This document shows positions 1,693-49,966 of a stretch of DNA of 64,000 bases, piece after piece. The DNA comes from Brucella rhizosphaerae (GTDB lineage: Bacteria; Pseudomonadota; Alphaproteobacteria; Rhizobiales; Rhizobiaceae), in the NCBI RefSeq assembly GCF_002252475.1, contig NZ_NNRK01000017.1, positions 248,001 to 312,000 of the forward strand, in the 5' to 3' direction. Made by a program: the position numbers and the translations under genes. The notes beneath the pieces were generated by a model. The model had not been told where the DNA came from. It ran no database searches and saw nothing but the letters and a program-made list of their open reading frames with translations. How positions within the stretch are numbered: position 1 is the first letter of the stretch; every line of letters begins with the position of its first letter.

Positions 1693-1721
1693 TTGACGCG
1701 TATTATGCCAGATTGTAATAC
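1693..1721 (+). promoter_or_regulatory. Sigma-70-type promoter of the B12 riboswitch operon
   Basis: TTGACG (1693-1698) and TAATAC (1716-1721) are separated by exactly 17 bases. A start about 7 bases downstream would fall at the 5' edge of the riboswitch. Confidence 0.6.
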
Positions 1722-1728
1722 AGTTACG

Positions 1729-1938
1729 ACGGTTCCCCGACCGAGAGCGAAGGGGATTAATAGGGAACACGGTGAGGACGACCCAAAAGGGACCAAAACC
1801 GTGGCTGCCCCCGCAACTGTAAGCGAATTGCCGTTCATCCTTGTGACGCCAAAAGCGTCATGTCACTGAGCCCGCTTCAGAAGGCTCGGGAAGGCAGGTG
1901 AACAGCGAATATTCGTGAGCCAGGAGACCTGCCGTCTA
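1729..1938 (+). promoter_or_regulatory. Cobalamin (B12) riboswitch
   Basis: The region carries the hallmark blocks in order: GGTTCC near the 5' end, AGGGAACACGGTGAGGAC, GGCTGCCCCCGCAACTGTAAG at about 1803-1823, a variable arm, and the closing GTGAGCCAGGAGACCTGCCG at 1915-1934, which includes the B12 box. The ribosome binding site of the first transport gene lies about 170 bases downstream, leaving room for an expression platform. Family knowledge: adenosylcobalamin binding lowers expression of B12 uptake or synthesis genes. Confidence 0.93.
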
Positions 1939-1985
1939 ACGTAGTCCATTGTCACGGGCGGGGATGCCCGGAGCAGGAGTTGGTT

Positions 1986-3147: not shown

Positions 3148-4199
3148 CGTCAAGGGCAGCCACAGCGGGTATTTCGTTGCAAAGTAAGATGAGCGCCCGA
3201 GTGCTCCTGGGAGTGCTTGCGCTCGTCTTGCTCTGCGTGGCCTTATGGCTGGGTGCTGCCATTGGCGAAACTGCCATACCTCTGGACGTGGTGGCGAAAA
3301 CCATTGCCAACCGCGTCTGGAATGCTGGTTATCCACTTGCGCCAATTGATGAAGGTATTGTGTGGAGCTATCGCTTAAGCCGGGCGGTCGTCGCAGCTTG
3401 TTGTGGCGCGGCGCTGGCCTTGTCGGGTGTGGTACTGCAATCGCTTCTCCGTAATTCGCTGGCTGATCCCTATATTCTGGGTATTTCTGCTGGTGCATCT
3501 ACAGGGGCGGTCGGCGTTGCAATCCTTGGGATTGGTGCTGGAGTGCTGTCACTGTCAGTGGGAGCGTTTATTGGTGCGATTGTCGCCTTCGTTCTGGTTT
3601 CCCTGCTCGCTTTGCGGGCAGGGCGCGGCAACAGTGCGATCATTCTTGCAGGTATTGCTGGTTCACAGCTTTTCAATGCGCTGACATCCCTCATTGTGAC
3701 GAAAGCGGCAAATGCTGAGCAGGCGCGCGGCATTATGTTCTGGCTACTGGGCAATCTTTCAGGTGTCCGCTGGCCAGATGTTGCGCTTGCGCTACCAGCC
3801 TGCATGGTGGGGCTCGTGATATGCCTCTGGCATTCTCGTGCATTAGACGCTTTCACCTTTGGTTCGGAATCTGCCGCTTCACTCGGTATCCCGGTTCGGC
3901 GGGTTTATGCTGTTCTGATTGGTGTGAGTGCCATGATGACAGCTGTGATGGTATCGATTGTTGGCTCCATCGGCTTTATTGGTCTGGTCATTCCACATGC
4001 GGCTCGCATGTTGGTCGGCGTTCGTCATGGCAGGTTGTTGCCTGCGGCAGCACTCATCGGCGCAATCTTCATGATATTGGCTGACATTGTGTCTCGTATC
4101 ATCATTCCCGGTCAGGTTTTGCCTATCGGAGTCATAACAGCCTTGGTTGGTGCACCTGCCTTTGCGTTGTTGCTTGGACAGAGGAGGGCGCAATCATGA
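3144..4199 (+). CDS. btuC: FecCD/BtuC-family ABC permease
   Basis: A 351-residue inner-membrane permease of the FecCD/BtuC family with about ten hydrophobic helices. Family motifs are clear: the SRAVVAACCGAALALSGVVL segment, NSLADPYILGISAGAS, and IGFIGLVIPHAARMLVG before the last helices, where the cytoplasmic coupling helix meets the ATPase. The start GTG 3144 overlaps the btuF stop (GTGA); ATG 3189 in the same frame is an alternative that removes 15 mostly polar residues. With its neighbours it forms a complete importer, likely for cobalamin because of the upstream riboswitch. Confidence 0.88.
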   Translation: MTSRAATAGISLQSKMSARVLLGVLALVLLCVALWLGAAIGETAIPLDVVAKTIANRVWNAGYPLAPIDEGIVWSYRLSRAVVAACCGAALALSGVVLQSLLRNSLADPYILGISAGASTGAVGVAILGIGAGVLSLSVGAFIGAIVAFVLVSLLALRAGRGNSAIILAGIAGSQLFNALTSLIVTKAANAEQARGIMFWLLGNLSGVRWPDVALALPACMVGLVICLWHSRALDAFTFGSESAASLGIPVRRVYAVLIGVSAMMTAVMVSIVGSIGFIGLVIPHAARMLVGVRHGRLLPAAALIGAIFMILADIVSRIIIPGQVLPIGVITALVGAPAFALLLGQRRAQS

Positions 4200-42889: not shown

Positions 42890-42979
42890 TACGATACCGC
42901 ATCACAACAATGCGTATCGCCTTTGTCTGAAAGGAATGGTAGGGTTGTCCGACATCCTCCACTCCCTTCAGGCTCATTC

Positions 42980-44203
42980 ATGTCTCAGTTAAAGTCCTCC
43001 GCTGCGCCGCGAGAAACATCGCCGCGTGCATCTGCAAGGTTGGCAGAATTTGCGCTCGCCATCGGCGGCTTCGGTATTGGCACCGGAGAATTCGCGATCA
43101 TGGCGCTTCTGCCCGATATTGCGCGAGATCTGAATGTAACTATTCCGAGCGCCGGGCACCTTATCAGTTCCTATGCTTTGGGCGTTCTGATTGGTGCGCC
43201 TGTGCTGGCCGTTCTGGGTGCAAAACTCGACCGTCGCAAACTGTTGTTTTTACTTATGGGGCTTTTTGCTTTCGGCAATCTCGCCAGCGCATTTATGCAT
43301 GACTATACCGGTCTTTACATAATGCGTTTTGTTGCGGGTTTTCCGCATGGTGCCTATTTCGGCGTGGCCTCGTTGGTTGCGGCCTCATTGGCAGAGCCTG
43401 GCAAGCGGGCGCAAGCCGTTGGCCGTGTTATGATGGGGCTCACCATTGCCACATTGTGCGGAACGCCTTTGGCGACATGGCTGGGACAAGCAGCTGGTTG
43501 GCGTGCGATGTTTGCAGCCGTGGGCTTGATCGCCATTCTCACAATGGTGCTGGTCATGATTTATGTGCCAAAGCAGCCTGCGGATGAAGGCGCATCTCCC
43601 TTGCGGGAACTGGGTGCATTTCGCCGCAAGCAGGTCTGGCTGACGCTTGGTATCGGCGCCATTGGCACAGGTGGGCTGTTTTCTGTCTTTACCTATATTG
43701 CTGCCACGGTGACGGAAGTTTCGCACATCGATGCAAAGTGGATGCCAATTGTTTTCGCTACGTTCGGTTTGGGTATGGTGCTCGGCAACGTCGTTGGCTC
43801 AAAACTAACCGACCGTTCTGTTATGGGGACGGTGGGAATGGTGTTGCTCTATGACATGGCGGTCATGCTGCTATTTCCATTGCTTATGCAGCATCCGGCC
43901 ACAGCGTTTTTGAATATTCTGCTCGTGGGTGGTGGTTTTGCGCTCGTCCCAGCTCTACAGACGCGTTTGATGGATGTGGCTGCAGACGCACAGACACTGG
44001 CCGCAGCGCTCAATCATTCTGCGCTCAATCTCGCAAATGCAATTGGCGCATGGCTCGGCGGACTTGCTGTCGCGTGGGGCTTTGGCTGGACATCGACCGG
44101 AACTGTTGGTGCATTCCTGGCTGTTGCGGGCCTCGGCGTGTTCGCGTTGTCGATCGTTTTGGATCGTGCTGGGCGGGAAAAGGCGGCACTAGCAACGCAA
44201 TGA
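42980..44203 (+). CDS. MFS transporter (AraJ/drug-efflux type, DHA1)
   Basis: A 407-residue 12-helix major facilitator protein of the AraJ/YdhP group: FGIGTGEFAIMALLPDIARDL in helix one, LGAKLDRRKLLFLLMGLF at the loop 2-3 signature, and GFPHGAYFGVASLVAASL in helix four/five. These proteins usually export drugs, sugars or nucleobases. ATG 42980 is preferred; TTG 42922-42924 is in frame but lacks support. It is the last of three plus-strand genes and its stop lies just before the minus-strand RNA locus terminator. Confidence 0.85.
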   Translation: MSQLKSSAAPRETSPRASARLAEFALAIGGFGIGTGEFAIMALLPDIARDLNVTIPSAGHLISSYALGVLIGAPVLAVLGAKLDRRKLLFLLMGLFAFGNLASAFMHDYTGLYIMRFVAGFPHGAYFGVASLVAASLAEPGKRAQAVGRVMMGLTIATLCGTPLATWLGQAAGWRAMFAAVGLIAILTMVLVMIYVPKQPADEGASPLRELGAFRRKQVWLTLGIGAIGTGGLFSVFTYIAATVTEVSHIDAKWMPIVFATFGLGMVLGNVVGSKLTDRSVMGTVGMVLLYDMAVMLLFPLLMQHPATAFLNILLVGGGFALVPALQTRLMDVAADAQTLAAALNHSALNLANAIGAWLGGLAVAWGFGWTSTGTVGAFLAVAGLGVFALSIVLDRAGREKAALATQ

Positions 44204-44210
44204 AGTGCAC

Positions 44211-44375
44211 AAAAAACAACACCCGTCGCAGGGGAGGCGACGGGTGTCGTTTAGGGTAAGACCGGATTGGGAGGAGGAGTTCCGGTCTTTATAATCACCG
44301 AGGCTAATGGGAGGAGGGATGCCCCGGCGATATCTGAGAAACTGTGAGGACCGCACAGTTTGTGGGGGCGCGGTC
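44211..44375 (-). ncRNA. Candidate cuckoo-type sRNA with three anti-SD loops
   Basis: Read on the minus strand, hairpins follow one another. A stem GGACCGC/GCGGTCC comes first, with a C-rich loop. CCGGGGC/GCCTCGG (44327-44298) has loop ATCCCTCCTCCCATTA. TCC-GGTCTT-type stem AAGACCGGA/TCCGGTCTT (44289-44258) has loop ACTCCTCCTCCCAA. The final 11-pair stem ACACCCGTCGC/GCGACGGGTGT (44247-44219) has loop CTCCCCT and is followed by TGTTTTTT, an intrinsic terminator. The DUF1127 gene lies directly upstream. This arrangement matches the cuckoo (CcsR) RNAs of Rhodobacter, which follow the DUF1127 gene ccaF1. Confidence 0.75.
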
Positions 44376-44474
44376 CAAAAAAAGGCTTTCTTACGAAGCC
44401 AGGTAGTTGGCGCTTGCCTTCCGAAATAAACGCAGCTTGTCCTAAAACCGCTTTACGCTTTTCGGAATTCGCTA

Positions 44475-44621
44475 TCAGCGAGCAGCAGCCTTGCGTGCTA
44501 CGAACGGAATTTCCGAAGGCATGATGCCGAGGTCGTTCAGTTCACGTGGGCTCAGGCGGCTCAGTTCGTTTACTGTATTACGGTAACGGCGCCAGTTGTT
44601 GTACGAGCGGATCAGGTTCAT
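44475..44621 (-). CDS. DUF1127 small arginine-rich protein, 48 aa
   Basis: Begins MNLIRSYNNWRRYRNTV, with the DUF1127 core WRRYRNTVNELSRLSPREL (residues 10-28) followed by NDLGIMPSEIPFVA. AGGTGAGAG lies just before the start. Members are small basic RNA-binding proteins; CcaF1 of Rhodobacter binds and helps mature the CcsR RNAs downstream of its gene. The equivalent RNA is visible 100 bases downstream here. An ATATAGG stretch at 44667-44673 gives CCTATAT on the minus strand, resembling an RpoH-type -10 element; the -35 is not convincing. Role as RNA chaperone or stress regulator is inferred. Confidence 0.85.
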   Translation of the reverse strand: MNLIRSYNNWRRYRNTVNELSRLSPRELNDLGIMPSEIPFVARKAAAR

Positions 44622-44673
44622 TTCTCTCACCTAGTCAAAAAATCAAATCTCTTTGTTGCCAACAGCATATAGG

Positions 44674-45050
44674 TGGGTTGCTCTGAAAGTTGCAGAGACA
44701 GATTTGCATAGCTGCTGTGCAATTTAGCCTGTCGATTGCACGTCTTTTGCGCAGCTTGGTCATTATGTGATCACAATTGCCAATCCACATAGGCAAATCA
44801 CCATACTCAAGGCATTTCGCTGCTCTAATCATTAATGAATCATGACAGGACAGTGAGATCCACTATCTTGATGTCGCGTGATAGAGAGTTTCCTCGTAAC
44901 GCTCGACTGGGCGAAGATTTTGTCGCAAAAGTTCGGGAATTTGTCGGCTGAAGACAATAATCCGCATGACACCCAAATCGTATTGCTTTAAAGGGTGATA
45001 CGTCGTGTGCAAGCGTGTGACTCTTAAGCAATCACATTCTTGTACTGTCT
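44674..45050. other. Intergenic region between DUF1127 promoter and glycine riboswitch
   Basis: No convincing gene. It should hold the promoters of the minus-strand DUF1127/sRNA unit and of the plus-strand riboswitch-gcv operon; I cannot place the latter with confidence. Two minus-strand frames here are unsupported and partly cover the riboswitch. Confidence 0.4.
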
Positions 45051-45223
45051 GTCTGCGGGAGAGCGCTTTTAAAGCCGCCGAAGGGGAAATCGCCCGAAAT
45101 CTCTCAGGTACAAGGAACCGCAGACGGGTAAGGCAACTCTGGAAAGTCGGAGGAAACTCCGCGCCGAAGGTGTAAGTATGGCTCTTTATATAGCCATGCG
45201 AGTCTCTCAGGCCTGAGACAGAG
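45051..45223 (+). promoter_or_regulatory. Tandem glycine riboswitch
   Basis: Two consecutive aptamers. The first is closed by GTCTGCGG/CCGCAGAC (45051-45058/45118-45125) and holds GGGAGAGCGC and GCCGCCGAAGGGG, then CTCTCAGGTACAAGGA. The second is closed by CTCTG/CAGAG (45137-45223) and repeats GCGCCGAAGGTGTAAG and CTCTCAGGCCTGAGACAGAG. This two-aptamer layout is the known cooperative glycine sensor that turns on gcv genes when glycine is plentiful. It ends about 54 bases before the gcvT start. Confidence 0.93.
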
Positions 45224-45276: not shown

Positions 45277-46380
45277 ATGGGCGATACCGAATTTTTGAAT
45301 ACTCTGCCTTTACATGATCTGCATGAAGAAGCTGGCGCTCGCTTTGGCGGCTTTGCCGGATGGAATATGCCGATCACTTATCCGCTCGGCGTGATGAAGG
45401 AGCACCTTCATACCCGTGCGCATGTTGGTCTCTTCGACATTTCTCATATGAAGCTGATCGAAGTATCCGGCCCCGACGCCGTAGAGCTTCTCGCACAGGC
45501 GTGCCCCCTTGATCCGTCGGTCTTGGGTACTGGTCAGTCAAAATATACGTTCTTCCTCAATGAAAAAGGCGGCATCCTTGATGATCTGATCGTCACGCGC
45601 CTTGGTGATGATCGTTTCATGGTTGTTGCCAATGCAGGCAATGCGGAAGCCGATATTGAGCATCTTCAGGAAGAAGCCGCTGGCAAGGACGTAAAGGTCA
45701 ATCCGCTTGACCGTGTGTTTATCGCCATTCAGGGGCCGGAAGCTGAAGATGTCATTAAGGATTTGGGACTTGCCGGTTCCGATCTCTCTTTCATGAACGG
45801 TTTTGAGCCAAAAGCTGGCTGGTTCATGACCCGCTCTGGCTATACCGGCGAAGACGGCTTTGAAGTCGGTCTGCCTGCCGACGAAGCGCGCGAGCTGGTG
45901 AAGAAGCTTCTGGCTGATGAACGCGTTGAGTGGATTGGTCTTGCAGCTCGCGACAGCTTACGCCTTGAAGCAGGACTTTGCCTGCATGGTCAGGACATTA
46001 CGCCGGAGACAGATCCGGTTTCCGCTGGCCTCACCTGGGCTATCTCCAAGCCAGTGCGTGAGAAAGCAGTCTTCAACGGTGCACCAGCTGTGCTCGCAAG
46101 ACTTGAGCAGGGCGTGGACGCAAAGCGCGTTGGCCTTAAGGCAGAAGGCCGCCAGCCAGTGCGCGCAGGTGTTGATCTTTTTGACGAGAGCGGCCGTCAG
46201 GTCGGCACTGTCACTTCGGGCGGTTTTGGTCCGTCCGCCGGTTTCCCGGTCGCCATGGGCTTTGTCGAGCTTAGCCTCGCAAAGCCCGGCACCCGCATTT
46301 TCGCTGAGGTACGCGGTAACAAGGTTCCCGTCGATGTCTCAGCACTTCCCTTCACACCCCATCGCTATCGCAAAGGATGA
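45277..46380 (+). CDS. gcvT: Glycine cleavage system T protein (aminomethyltransferase)
   Basis: A 367-residue GcvT. Characteristic stretches include [45 protein letters not shown]-type [15 protein letters not shown], the folate-site region [18 protein letters not shown], and the C-terminal barrel with [17 protein letters not shown]. It moves the methylene group from the H-protein lipoyl arm to tetrahydrofolate, releasing ammonia. First gene of gcvTHP behind a glycine riboswitch; gcvH starts 6 bases after the stop. Confidence 0.95.
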
Positions 46381-49835: not shown

Positions 49836-49966
49836 CAAAAAAAGAGCCGGACTAAAAAGTCCGGCTAAGTTATGAAGGTGCCACAAGGGCAAACCTCCAG
49901 AGGGGAACACTTACCGCGCGCAATGGGAGGAGGCGCAAGCGGTAAGTACCTGTCATATGGATCAGT
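49836..49966 (-). ncRNA. Stand-alone candidate sRNA with anti-SD hairpin loop
   Basis: On the minus strand, the stem ACTTACCGC/GCGGTAAGT (49947-49909) extends inward by GCGC/GCGC and displays the apical loop CTCCTCCCATT. A second part with GCCCTTGTGGCAC follows, then a 9-pair terminator AGCCGGACT-TTTT-AGTCCGGCT (49866-49845) and CTTTTTTTG. It shares the anti-SD loop with the RNA at 44211-44375 but has no DUF1127 gene upstream. It resembles the alpha-r14/NfeR1 type of rhizobial sRNA. The 5' end is not fixed. Confidence 0.7.

What the first reader, a model, noticed from the sequence alone, without database searches (positions are those of the whole stretch)
44211..44621. DUF1127 gene followed by a multi-loop anti-Shine-Dalgarno RNA
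Three consecutive minus-strand hairpins expose CUCCUCCC or CUCCCC in their loops and the last is a strong intrinsic terminator; the 48-codon DUF1127 gene is directly upstream. This mirrors ccaF1-ccsR1-4 of Rhodobacter, where the RNA is released from the DUF1127 transcript and tunes C1 metabolism and stress defence. Here the locus sits next to the glycine cleavage operon, itself a C1 source, which makes a functional link attractive.
Basis: partly seen in the sequence, partly recalled or inferred. Interest (0 to 1): 0.7.

Follow-up and report, generated by a model that had tools for sequence, protein, structure and literature searches.

The report
Small-protein gene with attached regulatory RNA
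A 48-residue protein gene is followed by a small RNA whose hairpin loops can cover the ribosome-binding sites of other genes; the arrangement is of a known kind, but a shared control site in front of most relatives examined suggests that one regulator switches on the whole set.

Summary
Confirmed: minus-strand hairpins at 44214-44331 carry CCUCCUCCC, CCUCCUCCC and a shortened CCUCCCC, after a DUF1127 gene (44475-44621). Rfam calls the RNA ar14 (76.6 bits, cut-off 58.8), the family of Sinorhizobium NfeR1. DUF1127 plus such an RNA is the published CIN1 arrangement, so this is a new member of a known kind. Of 80 related DUF1127 loci 66 have at least two such hairpins downstream (control 6 of 1237); in 37 of the 66 they begin within 20 nt of the stop codon, which fits one transcript. 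Added here: the published VtlR/LsrB motif stands before the DUF1127 gene in 35 of 35 congeneric nested ar14 copies, in none of the 150 nt before their RNA, and 38-45 nt before the RNA in 36 of 39 solitary copies (background 7-9%). LsrB control of one solitary ar14 RNA, NfeR1, was already known; its extension to nested copies is my inference. Across the 80 loci the motif does not track the RNA array (54 of 66 with, 12 of 14 without). The glycine-cleavage link is not supported. The window copy looks partly decayed. No expression data were available.

The parts
44706..44718 (-). VtlR/LsrB-type box ACAGCAGCTATGC (plus strand GCATAGCTGCTGT = GCAT-N3-TG-N3-T), ending 84 nt before the DUF1127 ATG
   Evidence: Motif as published (passages of PMC7486931 and PMC12595884); present upstream in 66 of 80 DUF1127 relatives and in 71 of 74 congeneric ar14 loci, background 7-9%
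44667..44672 (-). -10 element CTATAT, 33 nt after the box
   Evidence: Read directly; the same hexamer at the same spacing 35 times in 80 relatives
44475..44621 (-). DUF1127 gene, 48 codons
   Evidence: PF06568 E 1.6e-15; 100% identical protein in three named genomes
44411..44469 (-). 59-nt insert of an interspersed repeat, shared only with L017 (Brucella pituitosa) among 19 aligned relatives
   Evidence: Alignment A2; core pattern 16 places in the genome with up to 2 mismatches, reversed control 1
44377..44400 (-). Terminator-like hairpin (5 bp) with 7 T; possible attenuator between gene and RNA
   Evidence: -6.2 kcal/mol, z -1.53; among the 18 relatives printed the longest T run there is 5 (L033)
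44348..44376 (-). Spacer hairpin B (9 bp), loop without the aSD motif
   Evidence: -16.3 kcal/mol, z -5.22; 4 of 9 pairs with changes on both sides, 88.3% of cells paired
44214..44335 (-). ar14 RNA (Rfam RF02344)
   Evidence: 76.6 bits, gathering score 58.8, E 4.8e-12
44294..44331 (-). aSD hairpin 1, loop with CCUCCUCCC
44258..44289 (-). aSD hairpin 2, loop with CCUCCUCCC
44214..44252 (-). aSD hairpin 3 and terminator, loop CUCCCCU (shortened motif), U tract to 44211
   Evidence: -27.4 kcal/mol, z -8.53 for 44211-44253

Best explanation
The locus is a CIN1-type unit: one promoter before the DUF1127 gene makes a transcript that carries the short protein and, at its 3' end, an ar14 (cuckoo-type) RNA. 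The promoter is activated by the LysR-type regulator VtlR/LsrB through the box at 44706-44718. The ar14 part is released by ribonuclease cleavage between the stop codon and the first aSD hairpin and kept stable by its terminator. Its exposed loops pair with Shine-Dalgarno sequences of mRNAs, mainly of transport and metabolism genes, and lower their translation; the protein acts separately or on the RNA. Shown here: hairpins, Rfam membership, gene order, conservation, covariation, box positions. Inferred: cotranscription, VtlR/LsrB control, processing, targets. The window copy is probably weaker than its four sister copies.
For: ar14 hit over cut-off; fold z -8.76; 14 pairs with changes on both sides, 0 of 500 shuffles. 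Two or more aSD hairpins after 66 of 80 related DUF1127 genes, control 6 of 1237 random stretches and 5 of 732 stretches after long open frames. Among the 61 loci without gcv next door 47 have the array, and in 37 of these it begins within 20 nt of the stop codon, leaving little room for a promoter outside the gene. Box before DUF1127 in 35 of 35 congeneric nests, in 0 of 35 within 150 nt before the nested RNA, and 38-45 nt before the RNA in 36 of 39 solitary copies; background 146 of 1660 and 111 of 1660. Papers, passages seen: LsrB binds and activates the ar14 RNA NfeR1 (PMC10746234); VtlR binds and activates the DUF1127 gene atu1667 (PMC7486931 section 9); the ccaF1-CcsR precursor is cut by RNase E (PMC10253847).
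Against: No transcript data. The window spacer (139 nt) has room for a promoter and holds a terminator-like hairpin with 7 T, so read-through may be partial. The sigma-70 scan found no minus-strand promoter, but it missed the DUF1127 promoter too. The box does not track the array: 54 of 66 loci with an array have it, and so have 12 of 14 without one, nine of them Rhizobium/Neorhizobium-type loci with no aSD hairpin; it may serve the protein alone. Twelve loci with arrays lack the exact box, the five Aurantimonas loci among them. The 74 congeneric loci are related, are 74 of 183 matches (my sum), and were taken from the better-scoring rows. Distances in solitary copies run to the Rfam hit start, not to a mapped start site; 16 of 36 show no NTATNN 24-44 nt after the box. 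In print: a genome search with the VtlR consensus in A. tumefaciens gave one further site only (PMC7486931 section 10); that paper finds no LsrB control of AbcR in S. meliloti and calls the circuit diverged.
Confidence: 0.65

Rival explanations
1. The ar14 RNA is transcribed on its own from a promoter in the spacer, like NfeR1, and the DUF1127 transcript ends at the terminator-like hairpin at 44377-44400.
For: Terminator-like hairpin with 7 T; the three solitary ar14 copies of this genome have their own box; the 139-nt spacer gives room.
Against: No box within 150 nt before the RNA in 35 of 35 nests, window included; the T run is longer here than in the 18 relatives printed; in 37 of 47 arrays of the non-gcv group the RNA begins within 20 nt of the stop.
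Confidence: 0.17
2. The window copy is a decaying paralogue with little activity, kept mainly as the terminator of the DUF1127 gene.
For: Lowest-scoring of the five copies over the cut-off (76.6 against 83.8-85.2 bits); shortened third loop; 59-nt repeat insert; T run.
Against: Two loops keep the exact nine-base motif and the stems are intact; the insert is shared with B. pituitosa, so it has been tolerated for some time.
Confidence: 0.25
3. The RNA regulates the neighbouring glycine-cleavage operon as a dedicated one-carbon circuit.
For: gcvT lies upstream in 19 of 80 related loci; CcsR RNAs of Rhodobacter affect C1 metabolism (passage).
Against: The 19 are the best-matching orthologues plus two, so the neighbourhood is probably inherited once (no tree was built); gcvT, gcvP and gcvH rank 11th, 22nd and 35th of 55 start regions; the operon already has a glycine riboswitch.
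Confidence: 0.06

Closest known systems
ar14 / NfeR1 (Smr14C2) sRNA family, Rfam RF02344
   Same: Three hairpins with CCUCCUCCC loops, terminator in the third, several copies per genome, LTTR box in the promoter (passages of PMC10746234 and PMC7143759).
   Different: NfeR1 is described with its own promoter; this copy lies behind a DUF1127 gene and its box lies before that gene; third loop shortened.
CIN1 locus / ccaF1-ccsR1-4 of Rhodobacter sphaeroides (cuckoo RNA family)
   Same: Short DUF1127 gene followed on the same strand by aSD hairpin RNA ending in an intrinsic terminator; association named CIN1 and called frequent in alphaproteobacteria (passage of PMC10253847).
   Different: Four RNAs, the two-hairpin form described in PMC3927594, an RpoHI/RpoHII promoter and a 71-residue protein; here one three-hairpin RNA, a 48-residue protein and a VtlR/LsrB-type box.
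VtlR/LsrB regulon (AbcR RNAs, VrsA, DUF1127 genes atu1667, BAB1_0914, BAB2_0512, BAB2_0574)
   Same: Published VtlR motif before a DUF1127 gene.
   Different: In the passages I saw, the ar14 part is not named as a target at DUF1127 genes; PMC7486931 leaves open whether atu1667 is a protein or an sRNA. A 2021 paper entitled as showing that a LysR-type regulator controls numerous small RNAs in A. tumefaciens was seen only in a reference list and is not held.

Membership tests
ar14 (Rfam RF02344) | Covariance score at or above the curated cut-off | tested here: met
   76.6 bits against 58.8
ar14 (Rfam RF02344) | Three consecutive hairpins, the last a terminator | tested here: met
ar14 (Rfam RF02344) | CCUCCUCCC in every loop | tested here: inconclusive
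   Exact in 2 of 3 loops; third is CCUCCCC. Relatives often have a shortened third loop such as TCCTCCC, so the feature is looser than the published wording
CIN1 (DUF1127 plus cuckoo RNA) | Short DUF1127 gene directly upstream on the same strand | tested here: met
CIN1 (DUF1127 plus cuckoo RNA) | Cotranscription and RNase E release of the RNA | not testable with these tools
   Needs RNA data; spacing in relatives favours it
CcsR of Rhodobacter | RpoHI/RpoHII promoter before the DUF1127 gene | not tested
   No RpoH matrix was run; conserved upstream elements seen are the LTTR box and CTATAT
CcsR of Rhodobacter | Tandem two-hairpin RNAs | tested here: not met
   One three-hairpin unit in the window
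VtlR/LsrB regulon | GCAT-N3-TG-N3-T box in the promoter | tested here: met
   44706-44718
VtlR/LsrB regulon | Binding by VtlR/LsrB and loss of the RNA in its deletion mutant | not testable with these tools
   Needs gel shift and RNA data

The most novel reading that the evidence does not exclude
In this group the ar14 RNAs as a set, solitary and nested behind DUF1127 genes, are the RNA arm of the VtlR/LsrB regulon: one regulator switches on several near-identical anti-Shine-Dalgarno RNAs at once, and DUF1127 genes reported as its protein targets are protein-plus-sRNA transcripts where an array follows them. This uncounted RNA would be a candidate for vtlR phenotypes that the protein genes and AbcR2 did not explain.
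Probability: 0.5. Interest if true: 0.6.

Novelty: new member of a known kind. Interest (0 to 1): 0.45.

Why it matters
A paper on Brucella melitensis names three DUF1127 genes and AbcR2 as the main VtlR targets and finds that overexpressing them does not restore the mutant (PMC12595884, passages). A paper on Agrobacterium leaves open whether its DUF1127 target is a protein or an sRNA (PMC7486931, passages). If ar14 hairpins are part of such transcripts, and solitary ar14 genes share the box, existing RNA-seq sets can be recounted to test it at once. It would also help to separate the two debated roles of DUF1127 loci, protein partner or RNA source, since disturbing such a gene can disturb both (inference).

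Tried and rejected
Special link to glycine cleavage: not supported (one search used a rough set of 55 start regions, mostly long open frames). CcsR as the family met: ar14 fits. Self-regulation by pairing of the loops with the gene's own start region: weak, -8.3 against -18.6 kcal/mol for the best of 55. The published 15-base motif on 81 upstream regions gave 53 with at most 3 mismatches, shuffles 2.2%; I changed to the shorter published form afterwards because it covers both orientations. Dropped or set by hand: L117 (1 of 30 genus loci) because its length did not fit, at a contig edge; the start of L122, also at a contig edge. The three solitary copies without an exact box (L114, L160, L163) show a one-mismatch form by eye; they are counted as lacking it. 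The box background was drawn from the same loci and so includes true sites. Nested copies were called by tblastn of DUF1127 proteins in the 600 nt before the RNA, E 1e-3. The window's ar15 copy has no good box match (6 mismatches), the ar15 copy on contig C21 has one (2 mismatches). The 2015 cuckoo-family paper, the 2021 CcaF1 paper and the 2021 paper on LsrB-controlled small RNAs were not held, so the novelty claim is limited to the searches named in the full report.

Full report
What is there. On the minus strand a 48-codon DUF1127 gene (44621-44475; PF06568, E 1.6e-15) is followed, after a 139-nt spacer, by 122 bases that Rfam calls ar14 (RF02344, 44335-44214, 76.6 bits, cut-off 58.8). Two loops hold the exact motif CCUCCUCCC, the third a shortened CCUCCCC. 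The stretch folds far better than shuffles (z -8.76) and the nine-base motif is rare in the window (3 found, 0.18 expected).

Surroundings. Upstream and divergent is gcvT (45277-46380), with gcvH and gcvP behind it and a glycine riboswitch at 45046-45130. Downstream and convergent is an MFS transporter (42923-44203). An AbcR-type RNA (ar15) lies at 49947-49839, minus strand. The window is part of a 4.9-Mb genome. The DUF1127 protein is identical in Brucella pituitosa, B. gallinifaecis and Ochrobactrum chromiisoli, and the spacer insert is shared with B. pituitosa.

Sister copies. The genome has five ar14 matches over the cut-off, of seven at E <= 1, and six DUF1127 matches over the cut-off, of nine. 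Two of the five ar14 copies directly follow a DUF1127 gene: the window copy and one on contig C18, where the sequence shows four CCTCCTCCC motifs in a row after the stop codon. The other three have no DUF1127 gene within 600 nt. All 35 genomes searched in the genus, the own one included, have ar14, with 3 to 8 copies each at E <= 0.001. In three of these 35 (G010, G026, G032) two DUF1127 genes each are followed by several CCTCC motifs, and the other DUF1127 loci checked have none or one; ten of the 14 DUF1127 loci were checked, and one of the G010 nested ar14 matches is just under the cut-off (57.0 bits).

Relatives. Of these 80, 66 have two or more aSD hairpins after the stop codon, five have one and nine none; in 1237 random stretches of the same loci the same test finds two or more in 6, and in 5 of 732 stretches after long open frames. 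In the 61 loci without gcv next door 47 have the array, and in 37 of the 47 the first hairpin begins within 20 nt of the stop; in the 19 gcv-linked loci all have it, starting 21 to 142 nt after the stop. The short spacings leave little room for a separate promoter, so the RNA is most simply the 3' part of the DUF1127 transcript. Some loci carry long arrays, ten hairpins in L050 (Aurantimonas), nine in L093 (Nitratireductor).

Structure. On the window and 19 gcv-linked relatives 95.1% of cells pair, 14 of 50 pairs have changes on both sides (shuffles 5.4, sd 1.4, 0 of 500 as many), further pair types reach 39 (4 of 500 shuffles as many), and sliding the partners by one to three columns drops pairing to 37-49%. 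The relatives are close, so this is support, not proof. Besides the aSD hairpins this group has two hairpins without the motif in the spacer: B shows 4 of 9 pairs with changes on both sides, A none. In the window and L017 a 59-nt insert splits the spacer; its core occurs at 16 places in the genome with up to two mismatches, reversed control 1. In the window hairpin A is followed by seven T, more than in the 18 relatives printed; read-through may be partial here.

Promoter. Upstream of DUF1127 the conserved elements are a box and CTATAT. The box fits the published VtlR motif: CAATGCAGCCATGCA in Brucella (passage of PMC12595884), GCAT-N3-TG-N3-T as given for B. abortus and A. tumefaciens (passage of PMC7486931). 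With the 15-base form 53 of 81 upstream regions have at most 3 mismatches, shuffles 2.2%. With the short form on either strand 66 of 80 relatives have it: 54 of 66 with an array, 12 of 14 without. So in this set the box belongs to the DUF1127 promoter whether or not an array follows. I then took 74 ar14 loci of the genus: 5 own, 29 of the 30 loci, and 40 further rows picked from its listing, of 183 matches by my sum; the listing was cut and favours better scores. Thirty-five are nested behind DUF1127: 35 of 35 have the box 81-103 nt before the gene and 0 of 35 have one in the 150 nt before the RNA. Thirty-nine are solitary: 36 have the box 38-45 nt before the RNA. Random stretches of the fetched loci have it in 146 of 1660 (200 nt) and 111 of 1660 (150 nt). 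With a loose TAT pattern a -10 lies 31-35 nt after the box in 66 of the 80 relatives, CTATAT at 33 in 35 of these, and in 19 of 36 solitary copies. In the genus, then, the box stands before whichever comes first, gene or RNA.

How it works, most likely. VtlR/LsrB activates the promoter; one transcript carries protein and RNA; cleavage after the stop codon frees the RNA; the loops pair with Shine-Dalgarno sequences. Support from papers, seen as stated: LsrB binds and activates the promoter of the ar14 RNA NfeR1, which silences ntrB (PMC10746234, abstract and passages); NfeR1 is 115 nt, acts through three aSD motifs and, unlike AbcR, is not described as Hfq-bound (PMC8844928, passages); VtlR binds the promoter of the DUF1127 gene atu1667 (PMC7486931, section 9); the ccaF1-CcsR precursor is cut by RNase E (PMC10253847 and PMC8625941, passages).

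Against it, or limiting it. PMC7486931 reports only one further site in A. tumefaciens with its consensus (section 10), no LsrB control of AbcR in S. meliloti, and a diverged circuit. The RNA-seq of the vtlR mutant in PMC12595884 gave 22 shared genes (passage); the passages I saw name no ar14 RNA.

One-carbon link. gcvT is in the 4-kb flank of 19 of 80 loci (a few loci are cut shorter by contig ends) and of none of the other 61. Among 55 start regions gcvT ranks 11th (-13.2), gcvP 22nd, gcvH 35th. Any strong Shine-Dalgarno scores well, so gcv is not special.

What is new. The kind is known: ar14 is an Rfam family and DUF1127 plus CcsR-like RNA is the CIN1 locus (passage). Part of the promoter story is known too: PMC10746234 cites an earlier alignment of ar14 promoters, Brucella included, with a conserved 29-nt stretch, and shows LsrB binding for NfeR1. 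A 2021 paper entitled as showing LysR-type control of numerous small RNAs in A. tumefaciens appears in a reference list and is not held. What I did not find is the join: a search for two or more of LsrB, NfeR1, DUF1127, VtlR and cuckoo RNA listed ten papers, none holding DUF1127 with NfeR1, nor VtlR with cuckoo RNA; CIN1 with DUF1127 or Atu1667 gave only PMC10253847. This covers open-licence papers only. Other DUF1127 papers, on protein partners (PMC12501420, passages) and attenuation (PMC12218461, abstract and discussion), do not bear on this locus directly.

Verdict. A known kind, correctly spotted; the C1 story is not supported; the shared box is the part worth following up. After checking I lowered the overall interest from 0.5 to 0.45 and the confidence from 0.68 to 0.65, because the box does not track the array and part of the LsrB link is in print.

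Noticed in passing
window 49839-49947 (-): AbcR-type RNA (Rfam ar15, 67.9 bits) beside the 3' end of gcvP; it lacks a good VtlR box upstream, whereas the ar15 copy on contig C21 has one, as reported for abcR1 and abcR2 of B. abortus.
   Followed up: partly
L050, L054, L057, L065, L077 (Aurantimonas), L093 (Nitratireductor), L048, L067, L069 (Mesorhizobium), downstream of DUF1127: Tandem ar14-like units, 6 to 10 aSD hairpins in a row.
   Followed up: no
L067 and L069, upstream of position 4001: A second DUF1127 gene lies directly before the matched one, with a box-like sequence before the first; this is why no box was scored before the second.
   Followed up: no
L157 and L159 (G018:C4); also G002, G009, G011, G029, G033, G034: Pairs of divergent ar14 copies some 700 bases apart.
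   Followed up: no
L071, L073-L076, L078-L080, L083: Rhizobium/Neorhizobium-type loci keep the VtlR-type box before DUF1127 but have no aSD hairpins after it.
   Followed up: partly
window 44411-44469: 59-nt interspersed repeat inserted between the DUF1127 gene and the RNA, shared with B. pituitosa.
   Followed up: partly
window 1713-1950 (+): Cobalamin riboswitch, 110 bits.
   Followed up: no
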